64,000 nt of DNA from Halotalea alkalilenta (GTDB lineage: Bacteria; Pseudomonadota; Gammaproteobacteria; Pseudomonadales; Halomonadaceae): the NCBI RefSeq assembly GCF_001648175.1, contig NZ_CP015243.1, positions 248,001-312,000 of the forward strand, written 5' to 3'. The translations under genes were made by a program, and so were the position numbers. The notes beneath the pieces were generated by a model. The model did no database searches. It saw only the letters and a list, made by a program, of their open reading frames with translations, and was not told the DNA's origin. Position 1 is the stretch's first letter, and every line of letters begins with the position of its first letter. Of this stretch, positions 32,053 to 39,400 are shown piece by piece.

Positions 32053-32102
32053 AGGTTCCCTGCCTCAACTTGGGTAGCGTACCCAAGGCATGTCATAATG
32101 AG

Positions 32103-32126
32103 CCCCAAGCGTGATAACGCTTGGGG
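32103..32126 (-). terminator. Perfect 10-bp hairpin in the cas8f 5' leader
   Basis: CCCCAAGCGT and ACGCTTGGGG form an uninterrupted stem around a 4-nt loop. It begins 15 nt after the stop of the mini-ORF at 32142-32177 and about 50 nt before cas8f. There is no U-tract, so it may stabilise the 3' end of a short RNA, act as an attenuator, or be a processing site. Confidence 0.6.
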
Positions 32127-32141
32127 CATGGCTGGACCGAA

Positions 32142-32177
32142 CTACCCGACTCTTCTAACGGGACGATAGCCAATCAT
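32142..32177 (-). other. Eleven-codon mini-ORF with near-perfect Shine-Dalgarno (CreT-like candidate)
   Basis: ATG at 32177 encodes MIGYRPVRRVG then TAG. The upstream minus-strand sequence is AAGGAGGTG (32191-32183), complementary to nine bases of the 16S 3' end, with ideal spacing. Codons 8-9 are tandem AGA AGA (32156-32151). A 10-bp hairpin follows the stop. In the Haloarcula I-B CreT toxin, a strong ribosome-binding site plus tandem AGA codons sequesters a rare arginine tRNA. Similarity of layout suggests an RNA toxin of that kind. Alternatives are a leader peptide controlling cas8f or chance. AGA AGA also occurs in the iclR gene here, so rarity is not absolute. Confidence 0.5.
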
Positions 32178-32228
32178 CCTCACACCTCCTTGCTCTTCGG
32201 AAAGCAAACCAGACGTTATCGACGCTTT

Positions 32229-32293: not shown

Positions 32294-32322
32294 AGAATAG
32301 GATTGCCCCCAGAACAAATCAA
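32294..32322 (-). promoter_or_regulatory. Predicted minus-strand promoter reading toward the mini-ORF and cas8f
   Basis: On the minus strand TTGATT (32322-32317) and TATTCT (32299-32294) are separated by exactly 17 bp, a fair sigma-70 promoter (4/6 and 4/6). Start would be near 32287, giving a long leader with the mini-ORF before cas8f. The -35 box directly abuts the CC PAM of the pseudo-spacer target. Confidence 0.55.
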
Positions 32323-32323
32323 T

Positions 32324-32342
32324 CCTAACAATCAATATTTTC
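32324..32342 (+). promoter_or_regulatory. Putative target (protospacer) of the mini-CRISPR RNA
   Basis: CC (32324-32325) followed by TAACAATCAATATTTTC (32326-32342). The pseudo-spacer begins TAACAGTCAATGTCTTC: 14 of 17 positions agree, with mismatches at 6, 12 and 14; position 18 also differs. Positions 6, 12 and 18 are the flipped-out bases not read in type I complexes. A Csy complex here would abut the promoter at 32294-32322 and could also reach the mini-CRISPR's own -35 box (32352-32357). Confidence 0.7.
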
Positions 32343-32382
32343 CAAAATAAATTTTCAGATTCCCTTGGCGTGATAGACTGTC

Positions 32383-32493
32383 CAGCGCAGCCGAACAGGC
32401 CGCTTAGAAATAACAGTCAATGTCTTCGAGGCATTACGTTCACTGCCGCACAGGCAGCCTCAGCCGGCCCGATCAAGGCCGGCTGCTTTATTT
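32383..32493 (+). ncRNA. Mini-CRISPR RNA gene (CreA/CreR-like) in the I-F cas locus
   Basis: Two degenerate I-F repeats flank a 27-nt pseudo-spacer (32411-32437). The left copy (32383-32410) ends CGCTTAGAAA and agrees with the Pseudomonas I-F repeat at 20 of 28 positions. The right copy (32438-32465) reads GTTCACTGCCGCACAGGCAG, with an intact CTGCC/GGCAG stem. A terminator follows at once. A possible promoter is TTTTCA (32352-32357), 16 bp, TAGACT (32374-32379). The predicted product resembles a crRNA with 5' handle CUUAGAAA. Its target lies beside the cas8f-side promoter. Function as CRISPR-like antitoxin or cas autoregulator is inferred. Confidence 0.75.
32461..32493 (+). terminator. Intrinsic terminator of the mini-CRISPR RNA
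   Basis: CAGCCGGCC (32461-32469) and GGCCGGCTG (32477-32485) form a 9-bp stem with a 7-nt loop, followed by CTTTATTT. The T-rich tail is on the plus strand only, so it terminates rightward transcription, i.e. the mini-CRISPR RNA. It overlaps the cas2/3 stop codon. Confidence 0.75.
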
Positions 32494-35400: not shown

Positions 35401-35829
35401 ACGACCCTCCAGGCGGCCATGAAGCCGGTCCTGAAATGCGCGACTGGCCTTACCAAGATCATGAAACAGGGCTGCCATCGCAGCCAATGAATGAATCAAG
35501 TGGCCGCTGTACCAATCGTTTTCATCCTCCGCGCGCAAGATATTGCGGCGTGTAGTATTGGTCGGGGATGCTCCCTTCATATTGAACTGTGCGGTATTGC
35601 CGACGATCCATAGCAACTCGCTATGATCACGTCCACGAATCCAGTGGCAAGCCACGGCGGTATTCTTGCGCGCTCGCCTGCGTAGCAACTTGCGTAGTGT
35701 CTCCAGCCCGGCCTGGGTGATCGGCGTTTGCCAGGTACGATCGCCACGCCGTTCGGCGAATTGATCGAGAATGCGCCGTGTCTCCTTAAGAGCATTCTTG
35801 CTGCATTGGGAAACGAGCAGGACATTCAC
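32488..35829 (-). CDS. cas3f: Type I-F Cas2-Cas3 fusion (cas2/3)
   Basis: A 1113-residue fusion. Residues 1-90 are a Cas2 domain (NVLLVSQCSKNALKETRRILDQF). The HD nuclease follows (LFHDLGKASRAF, His123-Asp124), then an SF2 helicase with Walker A STGCGKT (Lys441), a DExD-like VLDEPDD near 590 and SSATLPPAL. It degrades targets after Csy recruitment and forms the integration complex with Cas1. The frame is open upstream, but the GTG at 35829 matches the Cas2 N terminus and overlaps the cas1 stop (GTGA). Confidence 0.96.
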   Translation of the reverse strand: MNVLLVSQCSKNALKETRRILDQFAERRGDRTWQTPITQAGLETLRKLLRRRARKNTAVACHWIRGRDHSELLWIVGNTAQFNMKGASPTNTTRRNILRAEDENDWYSGHLIHSLAAMAALFHDLGKASRAFQDRLHGRLEGRNRYRHEWVSLRLLEAFVGDDDDETWLTRLERPTPDDDACWLGRLRSDGVDDVAKEEKTPFIKLPPLAAAIGWLILSHHRLPALPAYDDGGRQKWVGARADMNAANLPMLPEAITAAWNECVETAEMQDVRPYWVFPHGLPVTNDAWRQRSRRLARQLREVRTLAPPLESVYVMHLARLALMLADHHYSSLTGTGRLSGAWSTELYANTAVLNGKRQLCQPLEEHLLGVTRAAGEIVHRLPDMTRALPRIARHKGFRQRSRDPRFRWQDRAFDLAEGLRDKSRGQGFFGINMASTGCGKTIANGRIMYALNDPEEGARFSIALGLRTLTLQTGQVYREKLGLGSDDLAIRVGGGASRALFEHQQRGGGGSESRAALLDEQSHVHFEGQIDEHPLLSRAADDPHARALISAPVLVCTIDHLIPATESLRGGRQIAPMLRLMSSDLVLDEPDDFEIDDLPGLTRLVYWAGLLGSRVLLSSATLPPALVRGLFEAYRAGRTEYQRHRGVPGSPVSPCCAWFDEHGCVQQECAEGGQFDVAHMQFARQRAARLSDQAAVRRGYLVPLSAPSAHPDAVHQAIAQTILAQAFALHAQHHTVDPNSGKRVSFGLVRMANIQPLVAVAQAFYRSDIPEGRHIHLCVYHSQFPLLLRSRLEAQLDRALDRRTENTVFDLPDVRARIDRSSAADQLFIVLGSPVTEVGRDHDYDWAVVEPSSMRSIIQLAGRVRRHRPTPVHAPNIALLGTNVRHLKRTTPAFNRPGFETERDWPLASHQLTELLRAEEIEHIDSRPRLMPDEVLEPTRRLVDLEHARLAALMVEGSDVAAGRPRRKRRGEPVQINFGAYLFYRPQSMTLGALPMQQQPFREDNEPECEFVLLPDESGEDYGFWRVEQDGREEKLTRMETELDRIPEDVFRHPRIAPWNEPDYMAAVVDQAEAMDMTIERCAQRFGRIRLKTNYAPQGWHFHPALGFVRRK

Positions 35830-36803
35830 GCTCCTTGTGCTCCCAGGTCCAGGGCGACGGCCTTGAGAGTGTCGATCATGAAGTCCAGCGACTCGCTGCG
35901 AGTAAGATTCTCGATGCACGCCTGGCGGAATTCCTGCTCCTCGTCGCCGCGCACTGCGCTGACAAAGGCCTGAGGCAGGATGGTGGCATCCTTGACCAGA
36001 TCGGCCACGTCGAATACCAGGCCGCCACGGCGTGTCTTGCCGTGCAGCACCGCCAGACCGTGGGGCAGGCCGAGCACCCAGGTGGCGCTGGCGGCGAGGC
36101 CGTAGGCGAGGTAGTTGCCGTGGTCGAGGAAGCGGTTGGCTGGATCCGTGCCGGAGCCGCGCTTGGCGCGCACGAAGTCGCCATAGCTCACCGCCCGCGC
36201 GGCTAGAGCGAACAACTGCTTGCTCAGGCGCGCTTCCTCGGTGAGCAGAAAAGTGTTGTCCTGCGCGGACTGGATGGCAGCTTGCGCGGCCTCGAGGGCG
36301 CGTTCGAGGGCGCCGGTATCTACCAGAAATCCGGCGTCCTTGAGCGTTCGACTGTTCAGCCAGCTGAGGCGAATGCGTCCCAGTCGGGCCAGTTGGAAAG
36401 CCCTGGCCGCCTCCAGGCGCTTGCCGTCATCGAACCAGAATCGCACCCAATGCTGGAGGTACTCGGTCGGCCGGTACTCGCTCTGCGGATTGAACCAAGC
36501 GATCTCGACATCCACTTCATTGGCGCTGAACAGCGGCGTACCTCCGCCACCGCAAAATCCCACCAGCACGCCCGCCTTTGCCAGCTCGCGCATCGCCGCC
36601 TGGGTGATCGATGTGCCAGTGCCAAGCAGCAGGGAGGTGGTATTGGCAATCGGGATATTCCAGTACTTCGACCGGTTACCCTCGTCGGTGACGTACTCGA
36701 CTCGCCCACCGTTGACCAGTATTCGGCAATGCTGGAGGTAATAGAGATTGGCGCGCTTGGAGTGCAGGATCGTTTTCAAATCACTGGCAGCGATATCGTC
36801 CAT
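35826..36803 (-). CDS. cas1: Cas1, type I-F integrase
   Basis: A 325-residue protein very similar to Pseudomonas I-F Cas1 (MDDIAASDLKTILHSKRANLYYLQH at the start; the ATG at 36803 fits this exactly). Metal-binding residues are expected in LLTEEARLSKQLF, FLDHGNYLAYGLA and the following HGLAVLHG region. It catalyses spacer integration. It is first in a two-gene operon with cas2/3 (4-bp overlap) and is divergent from the Phd-RelE pair. Confidence 0.97.
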   Translation of the reverse strand: MDDIAASDLKTILHSKRANLYYLQHCRILVNGGRVEYVTDEGNRSKYWNIPIANTTSLLLGTGTSITQAAMRELAKAGVLVGFCGGGGTPLFSANEVDVEIAWFNPQSEYRPTEYLQHWVRFWFDDGKRLEAARAFQLARLGRIRLSWLNSRTLKDAGFLVDTGALERALEAAQAAIQSAQDNTFLLTEEARLSKQLFALAARAVSYGDFVRAKRGSGTDPANRFLDHGNYLAYGLAASATWVLGLPHGLAVLHGKTRRGGLVFDVADLVKDATILPQAFVSAVRGDEEQEFRQACIENLTRSESLDFMIDTLKAVALDLGAQGA

Positions 36804-37112
36804 GCGCGCCTCGGAACAGATGGGGTATGTGTCAGTTTGTATACTTTTATCAGACTTCCTTATCCATCGAAACGTCCCTATGGGCACGCTGAGGTCAATT
36901 CTCTCTACCTATAGCATCGCGAGGCATAGTTGCTGCCATGGATATGCCCTTTCCAGGCCTCACCACTGTAGCGGCCTGGTCGTCAAGGAGAGTCGACCAA
37001 GAGGAGGTATGAGTGACGCACCGAGGTGTCGGCCACATTGCGAAACATGGAAAATTGCACGAAAAAGCATATAATAAAGCGCAAAATCATATGATTCATT
37101 GTGAGGACAAAC
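36804..37112. promoter_or_regulatory. Divergent promoter region, cas1 / phd-relE
   Basis: A 309-bp spacer with no gene. The left part (about 36835-36865, GTTTGTATACTTTTATCAG) is AT-rich and should hold the cas1 promoter. On the right, AATCATATGATT (37085-37096) is a perfect 12-bp palindrome 17 bp before the antitoxin start; it is a good candidate for the autoregulatory operator of the Phd/YefM-type antitoxin. Confidence 0.55.
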
Positions 37113-37403
37113 ATGACCGGACTACTGGATCGAGCAGAGCATGCCGTCTCCGCCACAGCGATGGCCAGGGGCTTCAGTGCACGGCTCAAGGAAATATCTT
37201 CTCGCCGTACCGAGCGGCTGGTGGTGTTCAAAGACAATCAGCCCGCTGCTGTCATCATCAACGTCCAAGCCTATCAAGAGATGCTGGACGAACTGGAGAA
37301 CCTTAGGGTGGAGTCAGTTGCAAGAGAACGTCTGGAGAATTTCCATGAGGATCAAGCGATGACTCATGAGGAAATGCGTGCTCGATTCGCCAAGGACGAT
37401 TGA
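37113..37403 (+). CDS. Phd/YefM-type antitoxin
   Basis: A 96-residue antitoxin. Its N-terminal half is the Phd/YefM DNA-binding fold (SARLKEISSRRTERLVVFKDNQPAAVIINVQAY in residues 22-54). The C-terminal half is acidic and helical and should neutralise the toxin. A GTG four codons earlier is possible, but the ATG at 37113 has the GTGAGGA ribosome-binding site. It lies 3 bp upstream of the RelE-type toxin. The pair sits between I-F cas1 and the leader of array 2, so it may stabilise the CRISPR locus. Confidence 0.88.
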   Translation: MTGLLDRAEHAVSATAMARGFSARLKEISSRRTERLVVFKDNQPAAVIINVQAYQEMLDELENLRVESVARERLENFHEDQAMTHEEMRARFAKDD

Positions 37404-37406
37404 GGC

Positions 37407-37694
37407 ATGGCTTGGGAGGTGCTCTATCATCCGGATGTGGCTGAAGACCTCGATCGCTTGGGGCCTGCATCAGCCAACCGGATTCTCGATGTCATCGAAG
37501 AGCGCATCAGGGATGGAGAGCCGGACAAGCTGGGTAAACCCCTCCGCGGGCTGCTCGCCGGCTGCCGCCGCATCAGAACCGGCAATACCAGGATCATCTA
37601 TCGGATTAATGGAGAAGCCGTCCAGGTGCTGATCGTCGCGGTTGGAGCGAGGCGAGAAGAGGAGGTATATGCATTAGCCGAGAGGCGTGTATAG
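37407..37694 (+). CDS. RelE/ParE-family toxin
   Basis: A 95-residue RelE/ParE superfamily toxin (YHPDVAEDLDRL at the start, then LRGLLAGCRRIRTGNTRIIYRI and VQVLIVAVGARRE). RelE-like members cleave mRNA in the ribosomal A site; ParE-like ones act on gyrase. The basic residues in RRIRTGNTRIIYRI and the C-terminal RREEEVYALAERRV favour the mRNA interferase type but are not decisive. It is the second gene of the antitoxin-toxin operon. Confidence 0.88.
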   Translation: MAWEVLYHPDVAEDLDRLGPASANRILDVIEERIRDGEPDKLGKPLRGLLAGCRRIRTGNTRIIYRINGEAVQVLIVAVGARREEEVYALAERRV

Positions 37695-37931: not shown

Positions 37932-39400
37932 GTTCGCTGCCGCATAGGTAGCTCAGAAAACCCCGGGAATTGTATCAACAATTGAAAGTTTGTTCGCTGC
38001 CGCATAGGTAGCTCAGAAAGAGTCGGTGAGTGCGCGCGATGAGTCGAATACGTTCGCTGCCGCATAGGTAGCTCAGAAAGTCATGCTTCAGGCGTGTTTG
38101 CTCGAGCGCATGTTCGCTGCCGCATAGGTAGCTCAGAAATTGGGGTGCCGGGCGCCGAGACGGGCGCTTGCGTTCGCTGCCGCATAGGTAGCTCAGAAAG
38201 AGAGAGCCGGATCGGTGCGATCCGGTATAGAGTTCGCTGCCGCATAGGTAGCTCAGAAAATGCCTCTCGACCAGCACTTTCCATGGCACCTGTTCGCTGC
38301 CGCATAGGTAGCTCAGAAATAATCTCGGCATGATAGACCCCTCAAACGAAGGTTCGCTGCCGCATAGGTAGCTCAGAAAAGGATTCATAGCGCGTGTAGA
38401 GCGGCTCGCCAGTTCGCTGCCGCATAGGTAGCTCAGAAAATGAACTGCATGCGATCGAGACGAGTGGAGACGTTCGCTGCCGCATAGGTAGCTCAGAAAA
38501 GCGGGCAAATGCACTGGCCGCTCGCTGGAAAGTTCGCTGCCGCATAGGTAGCTCAGAAAGGCAGCACCTCAGGTGGCCGAGGCTGGTTTTTTGTTCGCTG
38601 CCGCATAGGTAGCTCAGAAAAGCGCCATCACGAATACCCGCGTGATCGGGTTGTTCGCTGCCGCATAGGTAGCTCAGAAAGAGCCCCACGACTCGGCGAT
38701 GCGTTCGATCCGGTTCGCTGCCGCATAGGTAGCTCAGAAAATGCTCGATGCCCAAGCTACCACCTGGTCGCGGTTCGCTGCCGCATAGGTAGCTCAGAAA
38801 AGACATGTTGATGCGTCGCTCGTACCACGCCGGTTCGCTGCCGCATAGGTAGCTCAGAAATCGACGACGCCCGTTAGCGTCACGCTCTTGCCGTTCGCTG
38901 CCGCATAGGTAGCTCAGAAAGGAGGATTAATCGGCGCTCATTAAAAATGCATGTTCGCTGCCGCATAGGTAGCTCAGAAAATGAACGCGCTTTTCTCGTC
39001 GCCCGCCTTGCGGTTCGCTGCCGCATAGGTAGCTCAGAAAGGAGGATTAATCGGCGCTCATTAAAAATGCATGTTCGCTGCCGCATAGGTAGCTCAGAAA
39101 ATGAACGCGCTTTTCTCGTCGCCCGCCTTGCGGTTCGCTGCCGCATAGGTAGCTCAGAAAAGCATGTTCGCCCTGGACCACGGCCTCAACCGGTTCGCTG
39201 CCGCATAGGTAGCTCAGAAAGAGCGCACCCCGGATCTCGCGCGATTCGTACCGTTCGCTACCGCATAGGTAGCTCAGAAAAGCCGCGGTGTCGCAAAGCG
39301 CACGACGGCGTAGTTCGCTGCCGCATAGGTAGCTCAGAAAGGAGAGGCCGTTTGACACCGTGTCACGCAGACGTTCGCTGCCGTGCGGCAGCTAAAGAGT
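37932..39400 (+). CRISPR. Type I-F CRISPR array 2 (25 repeats, 24 spacers)
   Basis: Repeats read GTTCGCTGCCGCATAGGTAG then CTCAGAAA on the plus strand, leader on the left. They differ from array 1 at two positions (T-to-C in the loop, C-to-T in the stem), leaving a G-U wobble in the Cas6f stem. Spacers are 32 nt, except one of 33 before 38593. The last copy (39373-39400) is degenerate and the 39253 copy has a point change, marking the old end. Segment 38893-39012 is repeated exactly as 39013-39132, duplicating two spacers. Confidence 0.97.

What the first reader, a model, noticed from the sequence alone, without database searches (positions are those of the whole stretch)
32383..32493. Mini-CRISPR RNA gene inside the I-F cas locus that targets the adjacent promoter
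Seen: two degenerate I-F repeats (32383-32410 and 32438-32465) flank a 27-nt pseudo-spacer and are followed at once by a plus-strand intrinsic terminator. The pseudo-spacer start TAACAGTCAATGTCTTC matches TAACAATCAATATTTTC at 32326-32342, preceded by CC, the I-F PAM. Mismatches are at 6, 12, 14 and 18. Positions 6, 12 and 18 are the bases that Cas7 thumbs flip out, so pairing is not required there. The target abuts a minus-strand promoter (TTGATT-17-TATTCT). Known: CRISPR-like RNAs (CreA of CreTA modules, CreR regulators) guide Cascade to cas-locus promoters with only partial, seed-centred complementarity and so repress without cleavage. Inference: this is such an element in a halomonad I-F system. 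The 32-nt Csy footprint would also cover the mini-gene's own -35 box, suggesting self-limitation.
Basis: partly seen in the sequence, partly recalled or inferred. Interest (0 to 1): 0.95.

Follow-up and report, generated by a model that had tools for sequence, protein, structure and literature searches.

The report
CRISPR-guarded rare-codon toxin module
Inside a salt-loving bacterium's CRISPR immune locus, a miniature CRISPR guide partly matches a site beside the predicted promoter of a tiny 11-codon reading frame carrying two rare arginine codons in a row; it is predicted to steer the immune complex to silence that gene, which likely makes a toxic RNA, so that losing the immune system would harm the cell.

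Summary
Two degenerate I-F repeats flank a 27-nt spacer between cas2-3 and cas8f, a terminator follows, and the spacer's first 17 nt match a CC-flanked site nearby except at 6, 12 and 14. Relatives show selection: in 85 cas8f stretches I found 42 mini-arrays, and in 42 of 42 the best upstream match is CC-flanked although the seeds differ. A later set gave 13 of 13. Positions 6, 12 and 18 match about as often as base composition predicts.

Below the targeted promoter lie a strong Shine-Dalgarno, an 11-codon ORF with AGA AGA at codons 8-9, and an 11-bp stem-loop: the elements of CreT toxins. Of 54 loci with a long target-to-cas8f stretch, 31 have such an ORF (2.2 in shuffles); of 19 short ones, none. 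With codons 8-9 left open, 26 of 28 homologous-frame ORFs have AGA/AGG or AUA pairs, one UUA UUA. So this is most likely a type I-F CreTA module, possibly also restraining cas8f. Guide lengths cluster near 14/20/26/32 nt, as whole Cas7f units predict. Toxicity and repression are untested.

The parts
32383..32410 (+). creA repeat 1 (psiR1): degenerate I-F repeat supplying the 5' handle CTTAGAAA
   Evidence: 20 of 28 to the array-1 repeat, 7 of the last 8; first-repeat stems show compensated changes in relatives
32411..32437 (+). creA pseudo-spacer, 27 nt
   Evidence: 14 of 15 scored seed positions match the target
32438..32465 (+). creA repeat 2 (psiR2): Cas6f hairpin kept, 3' end degenerate
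   Evidence: 17 of the first 20 match the array-1 repeat, 1 of the last 8
32461..32485 (+). intrinsic terminator of creA
   Evidence: 9-bp stem, 8 GC pairs, tail CTTTATTTCC; folds it
32352..32379 (+). predicted creA promoter (TTTTCA-16-TAGACT)
   Evidence: 8 of 12 consensus matches; prediction only
32324..32357 (+). CC PAM (32324-32325) and 32-nt protospacer frame of CreA (a 27-nt guide covers 32326-32352)
32294..32322 (-). predicted promoter targeted by CreA (TTGATT-17-TATTCT), -35 one base from the PAM
   Evidence: in 54 of 70 relatives a promoter-like pair lies within two bases of the PAM (shuffled flanks 6.4)
32142..32191 (-). creT core: Shine-Dalgarno AAGGAGGTG (32191-32183), ORF ATG ATT GGC TAT CGT CCC GTT AGA AGA GTC GGG TAG (32177-32142)
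32102..32127 (-). creT stem-loop GCCCCAAGCG..CGCTTGGGGC, 11 bp, 14 nt after the stop codon
30706..32052 (-). cas8f (csy1)
   Evidence: PF09611, 433.7 bits
29732..30709 (-). cas5f (csy2)
   Evidence: PF09614
28682..29716 (-). cas7f (csy3)
   Evidence: PF09615
28109..28678 (-). cas6f (csy4)
   Evidence: PF09618
32488..35919 (-). cas2-3 (ORF as listed)
   Evidence: Cas3_I-F_Cas2, Cas3 HD and C-terminal domains
35826..36887 (-). cas1
   Evidence: PF01867

Best explanation
Between cas2-3 and cas8f lie a two-repeat mini-CRISPR whose spacer partly matches a CC-flanked site beside a predicted promoter, and below that promoter an 11-codon ORF with a strong Shine-Dalgarno, tandem AGA codons and an inverted repeat; together they are predicted to act as a CreTA toxin-antitoxin in which CreA would guide the Csy complex to silence a likely tRNA-sequestering CreT RNA. 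Shown by sequence and comparison: the guide, the PAM, a matching seed that changes together with its target, the freedom of positions 6/12/18, promoter-like boxes against the PAM, the mini-ORF with tandem rare codons, the inverted repeat, and a full I-F cas set. Inferred: Cas6f processes the RNA; Csy with a 27-nt guide (about five Cas7f) binds but cannot trigger Cas2/3; binding at the -35 blocks transcription; loss of Csy would release CreT, whose strong initiation and stalling at AGA AGA would trap tRNA-Arg. Also inferred: because no terminator or promoter was recognised between creT and cas8f here, the same promoter may feed the csy operon, so one binding event would cap both toxin and Csy supply.
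For: Seed/target: in 42 of 42 mini-arrays from 85 stretches the best upstream match with any PAM is at CC; 40 unique pairs score 10-15 of 15, while 1478 swaps between unlike spacers give 5-12, two reaching 12. Later set: 13 of 13, scores 13-15; 154 swaps at most 11. Over 40 unique pairs positions 1-5 and 7 match 40/40, 6 matches 8/40 (7.3 expected from composition), 12 9/40 (6.6), 18 14/38 (12.2). Where the cas3 end was located, 30 of 30 loci with a cas3-cas8f gap of about 260 nt or more have the mini-array, 4 of 37 with less; 15 further loci had no cas3 end in the stretch, 7 of them with a mini-array. creT: 31 of 54 long loci, 0 of 19 short; shuffles 2.2 and 0.8. 29 of the 31 have a stem of 7 bp or more after the ORF (no shuffle control), and with codons 8-9 left open 26 of 28 homologous-frame ORFs have AGR or AUA pairs, one UUA UUA, one UCA AUA. 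AGA (2.9) and AGG (4.5 per 1000) are rare in 25 long window ORFs picked mechanically. PMC8501985 (abstract, section 3 part 2 of 6, passages) names strong SD, start codon, two AGA codons and a stem-loop as critical for the H. hispanica CreT. PMC10097628 (section 6 and passages) describes an I-F CreTA in the same cas3-csy1 gap with CC PAM, a 20-nt guide and a 33-bp mini-ORF; its Csy-dependent repression was shown after a repeat was replaced to suit another host.
Against: No expression, processing or toxicity data. The rare codons lie at codons 8-9, not right after the start as in H. hispanica; the Acinetobacter I-F CreT is reported to rely on a hairpin and start codon, so tRNA sequestration here is by analogy. 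23 of 54 long loci lack the tandem-codon ORF. Of 63 mini-arrays in the first two sets, one (L146) has no good target. The promoter boxes are weak and no promoter passed the scan. Terminator-like sites between mini-ORF and cas8f occur in 7 of 31 relatives, more than shuffles give (1.1), so a shared transcript is not general. In PMC7296934 guides shortened by 18 nt or more no longer suppressed phage in vivo, which speaks against the 13-15-nt guides of some relatives working well. The mini-ORF may be part of the cas8f leader, so a regulatory leader peptide is a real alternative.
Confidence: 0.78

Rival explanations
1. CreR-type autorepressor: the guide represses only the csy operon promoter and the mini-ORF is incidental.
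For: No minus-strand terminator and no promoter was recognised between the predicted promoter and cas8f in the window; 24 of 31 relatives have no terminator-like site and 0 of 31 a promoter-like one between mini-ORF and cas8f (shuffles 1.1 and 1.7). In 19 short loci the same kind of guide targets a site nearer to cas8f with no tandem-codon mini-ORF. CreR autorepression is reported for I-B, I-E and V-A (passage in PMC13131331); an I-F1 mini-array acting as a regulatory guide on cas8 promoters is recalled from Shmakov 2023, a paper not held.
Against: The mini-ORF with a rare-codon pair at a fixed place is found in 31 loci, 7 of them outside the window's family, which incidental sequence would not keep. 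Seven of 31 relatives do have a terminator-like site after it.
Confidence: 0.12
2. Leader-peptide control: ribosomes pausing at the tandem rare codons alter the downstream stem-loop and so tune cas8f expression; CreA represses the whole unit.
For: Mini-ORF, then an 11-bp stem-loop, then cas8f 89 nt after the stop codon, with no recognised terminator between.
Against: The codon pair changes between Arg, Ile and once Leu on one scaffold, odd for a sensor of one charged tRNA but natural for a toxin that needs any rare tRNA; the layout matches CreT elements tested in PMC8501985 and the I-F gap of PMC10097628.
Confidence: 0.08
3. Decayed remnant of an ordinary array with a self-matching spacer.
For: Both repeats are degenerate.
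Against: Joint seed-target change, compensated stem changes and the gap/presence rule in relatives.
Confidence: 0.02

Closest known systems
Type I-F CreTA of Acinetobacter sp. WCHA45 (PMC10097628; section 6 and passages read)
   Same: Same place (cas3-csy1 gap), two divergent degenerate repeats, CC PAM, divergent SD-led 33-bp mini-ORF below the target; a strain without the gap lacks the module.
   Different: Its CreT is reported to rely on a hairpin and the start codon; the terms rare codon and minor codon do not occur in its text. There point changes in psiS at 2-5, 7-9 and 13-17 abolished function, position 1 only partly, and 10, 12, 19, 20 did not; this agrees with the natural pattern here except at 1 and 10, which are kept in 40 and 38 of 40.
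Haloarchaeal I-B CreTA with tRNA-sequestering CreT (PMC8501985; abstract, section 3 part 2 of 6 and passages read)
   Same: Short ORF with tandem AGA or AUA codons and a stem-loop; crRNA-like antitoxin pairing at 1-5 and 7-11 beside a PAM; homologues there also carry AGA in place of AUA.
   Different: Archaeal I-B, other PAM, other scaffold, rare codons within the first few codons; here I-F bacteria, codons 8-9 (6-7 in three), and one UUA UUA case.
CreR / I-F1 regulatory mini-arrays (Liu 2023 and Shmakov 2023: known to me from citing passages and from memory; texts not read)
   Same: Mini-array whose partial match represses a cas promoter; the short-gap relatives here look like this.
   Different: CreR has no toxin partner; this window has a CreT-like mini-ORF below the promoter.
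Racr single-repeat anti-CRISPR RNAs (PMC10651486, passages read)
   Same: Repeat mimicry that engages Cas6f/Cas7f.
   Different: Carried by phages and plasmids and sequesters Cas proteins; this one is in the host cas locus, has two repeats and a matching site.

Membership tests
CreTA (type VIII toxin-antitoxin) | crRNA-like guide from repeat-like sequences with Cas6 hairpin and 8-nt 5' handle | tested here: met
   (sequence only); handle CTTAGAAA, hairpins present, stems compensated among relatives
CreTA (type VIII toxin-antitoxin) | PAM-flanked partial match at the toxin's promoter | tested here: met
   the promoter itself is predicted
CreTA (type VIII toxin-antitoxin) | CreT with strong SD, start codon, tandem rare codons and stem-loop | tested here: met
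   (sequence only)
CreTA (type VIII toxin-antitoxin) | linked intact Cascade genes | tested here: met
   cas6f, cas7f, cas5f, cas8f, cas2-3, cas1
CreTA (type VIII toxin-antitoxin) | CreT is toxic and Cascade-CreA represses it | not testable with these tools
   needs expression assays
CreR cas autorepressor | target is a cas promoter | tested here: inconclusive
   no promoter or terminator recognised between creT and cas8f in the window, so the promoter may serve both; 7 of 31 relatives have a terminator-like site
CreR cas autorepressor | no associated toxin | tested here: not met
   CreT-like mini-ORF at 32142-32191; toxicity itself untested
Racr | carried by a mobile element, no target-matching spacer | tested here: not met
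   lies inside the cas locus of a 4.39-Mb contig and has a CC-flanked matching site

The most novel reading that the evidence does not exclude
A widespread gammaproteobacterial I-F toxin scaffold with an interchangeable pair of rare codons at positions 8-9 (AGA/AGG, AUA, once UUA) sits in the leader of the csy operon, so CreA-Csy caps its own supply and the toxin with one binding event; and its guides have been trimmed by whole Cas7f units (14, 20, 26, 32 nt), yielding dedicated Csy complexes that bind but cannot call Cas2/3.
Probability: 0.4. Interest if true: 0.82.

Novelty: new variant of a known kind. Interest (0 to 1): 0.72.

Why it matters
It would extend rare-codon CreT toxins from archaeal I-B to bacterial I-F systems and show one toxin scaffold exchanging the tRNA it is predicted to trap. 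The natural guide-target pairs are an evolutionary readout of how Csy reads DNA: three five-base blocks are kept, each sixth base is free, and guide length tends to step by six. It also gives a direct test of whether a CRISPR effector is kept by addiction, by autorepression, or by both at once.

Tried and rejected
Self-limitation of the mini-gene by its own target: a minority of relatives, dropped as a general feature. Selection against a match at sixth positions: matches are near column expectation, so free rather than avoided. The target base there is often A (20, 18 and 15 of 31 cluster representatives at 6, 12 and 18; together 53 of 93, against 142 of 465 at the 15 other positions of 1-17); unexplained, relatedness not fully removed. 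Other targets: of 153 array spacers two have a weak 13-of-15 CC-flanked match in the window outside the arrays, no evident meaning. A first target-guided detector found nothing in 53 loci; it allowed only 5-nt loops. Allowing 4-nt loops and lengthening two stretches recovered 10 mini-arrays. The mini-ORF list often picked a wrong frame and was replaced.

What was counted and dropped. First set: 85 stretches = 81 rows of 79 family genomes, three order genomes, one named contig (L053). L053 and L090 were dropped as duplicates from unique counts; L013/L023 (one split cas8f) and L053 from the gap table. Second set: 69 stretches; nine loci of genomes already in the first set were left out, and five rows (G831, G673, G623, second rows of G479 and G613) were not fetched. 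There 21 forward mini-arrays passed the cut-off of 31, 20 with a target; L152 and L153 (reversed, scores 27-28) were added by me because their targets scored 13 and 15, so those two are chosen on the outcome; 46 of 69 were not counted. Third set: 68 stretches, 13 counted, 55 not (L176, L183 and L214 fell just under the cut-off; four stretches were re-fetches of genomes already in the second set). L152/L153 were left out of the creT scan. The long/short split is rough: in the second and third sets the stretch includes roughly 120 nt of cas8f. The 6-nt length pattern was seen before it was tested; L = 6N-4 was read afterwards.

Full report
What is there. The window is part of a 4.39-Mb single-contig genome; the named contigs with the closest cas8f are Halomonas, Billgrantia, Bisbaumannia, Modicisalibacter, Onishia and Salinicola, halomonads as I recall their taxonomy. 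It holds a full type I-F set: cas1, cas2-3, cas8f, cas5f, cas7f, cas6f, with two arrays whose counted spacers (130 and 23) are 32 or 33 nt.

Is the spacer-target match meaningful? In the first 22 cas8f loci scanned, 8 mini-arrays were recognised, with unlike spacers, and in 8 of 8 the best match on the cas8f side was CC-flanked. In 85 stretches 42 had a mini-array, and in 42 of 42 the best match with any PAM was at CC. Forty unique pairs scored 10-15 of 15 against 5-12 for 1478 swaps. A class- and order-wide set of 69 stretches gave 21 forward mini-arrays over the cut-off, 20 with a target and one (L146) without; two reversed ones below the cut-off were added because they had targets. A later set of 68 stretches gave 13 of 13 with targets; 154 swaps reached at most 11. 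Seeds and targets change together: in 55 pairs of similar loci, which share members and are not independent, 180 double changes kept pairing and 116 changes did not (37 spacer only, 47 target only, 32 both but unpaired), while at sixth positions 2 of 74 changes were paired ones.

How pairing is distributed. Over 31 cluster representatives positions 1-5 and 7 match 31/31, 8-11 28 to 30 of 31, 13 29/31, 14-17 between 78 and 85 percent, 19 18/27, then a decline; 6, 12 and 18 match 9/31, 8/31 and 7/27 against 6.9, 7.7 and 9.2 expected. The non-sixth positions up to 17 were used to pick the site, so their excess is judged by the swaps; 6, 12, 18 and beyond were not used.

Guide length. Measured from handle to second hairpin less the 5 canonical repeat bases, 75 guides run from 13 to 33 nt; 61 lie within one base of 14, 20, 26 or 32 (p 1.9e-8; one per cluster 27 of 31, p 1.7e-5; the 13 later ones 10 of 13, p 0.046, V-test 0.015; 8 of those in new clusters 7 of 8, V-test 0.006). 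PMC7296934 (abstract and passages) gives L = 6N - 4 for N Cas7f subunits in I-F1, a lower limit near 14 nt, and shows that truncated complexes bind but do not trigger Cas2/3. It also reports that binding weakens with shortening and that guides shortened by 18 nt or more no longer suppressed phage in vivo, which fits the shortest guides here badly. The window's 27-nt guide is one base from the five-subunit length. The pattern was noticed before testing, so the later set is the fairer test and is small; the boundary of 5 repeat bases is an assumption.

Promoter. A -35/-10-like pair within two bases of the PAM occurs in 54 of 70 loci against 6.4 in shuffled flanks (22 of 28 cluster representatives, 2.9 shuffled). 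So the complex would sit against the -35 box.

What the promoter drives. PMC10097628 places a CreTA module in this same gap in Acinetobacter. That led me to the leader below the promoter: AAGGAGGTG, then ATG ATT GGC TAT CGT CCC GTT AGA AGA GTC GGG TAG, then an 11-bp stem-loop. Among 73 loci, 31 of 54 long ones and 0 of 19 short ones have an SD-led short ORF with a rare-codon pair (shuffles 2.2 and 0.8). The scan asked for AGA, AGG or AUA pairs within the first codons; 28 of the 31 pairs sit at codons 8-9 and three at 6-7. Pairs are AGA AGA 16, AUA AUA 12, AGG AGG 2, AGG AGA 1; elsewhere in these ORFs Arg is CGN 21 times and AGR 4, Ile AUU/AUC 17. With codons 8-9 left open (SD of 6 or more, 9-15 codons, G/S/R at codon 3) 26 of 28 are AGR or AUA pairs; the others are UUA UUA (L067) and UCA AUA (L099). 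UUA and AGA are the two rarest sense codons in 25 long window ORFs. Seven of the 31 lie outside the window's family (L095, L101, L128, L132, L171, L192, L194; families as tabled).

Reading. The parts match what PMC8501985 lists for rare-codon CreT toxins and the layout of the I-F CreTA in PMC10097628. I therefore call this a CreTA module with a predicted tRNA-sequestering toxin. No terminator or promoter was recognised between creT and cas8f here, so the same promoter may feed the csy operon; but 7 of 31 relatives have a terminator-like site there (1.1 in shuffles). Short-gap relatives without the mini-ORF look like CreR-type autorepressors. Toxicity, repression and processing remain untested.

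Prior art. CreTA, CreR and I-F1 regulatory mini-arrays are known. In the listings of ten paper searches and in the passages I opened I saw no halomonad case, no bacterial I-F CreT with tandem rare codons at codons 8-9, and no 6-nt steps in natural regulatory guides; most listed papers were not opened, Shmakov 2023 is not held and Liu 2023 was not looked up by id, so this is no proof of novelty.

Noticed in passing
window 37101-37403 and 37407-37694 (+): YefM/Phd-like antitoxin and RelE-like toxin ORFs (by eye, no family search) between cas1 and array 2: a possible protein toxin-antitoxin pair inside the CRISPR locus.
   Followed up: no
L028:3132-3682; L030 shows the same 842-nt spacing: A ParD/ParE-like pair (by eye) lies between CreA's target and the mini-array, no tandem-codon mini-ORF was found, yet the seed still pairs across 842 nt: a possible swap of RNA toxin for a protein toxin-antitoxin pair.
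   Followed up: partly
targets in 31 cluster representatives: Target positions 6, 12, 18 are A in 20, 18 and 15 of 31, more than most neighbours; could reflect easier base flipping, promoter context or shared ancestry.
   Followed up: partly
L067, leader upstream of cas8f: Mini-ORF GTG ATT GGC TAC CAC GTG ACG TTA TTA GTC GTG TGA with an inverted repeat soon after: the only UUA UUA version seen.
   Followed up: partly
L152, L153: Mini-arrays in the opposite orientation with CCACT..AGTGG and CCGCC..GGCGG stems, below my cut-off, with CC-flanked targets scoring 13 and 15 of 15.
   Followed up: partly
L146: A good mini-array without a matching CC site upstream (best 8 of 15); its target may lie elsewhere.
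   Followed up: no
window 38887-39126 (+): Two neighbouring 120-nt stretches of array 2 are 99 percent identical: duplicated repeat-spacer units.
   Followed up: no
L003 against L002: cas8f is 88 percent identical but the mini-ORF is of the AUA type and resembles that of L039, suggesting the module is exchanged on its own.
   Followed up: no
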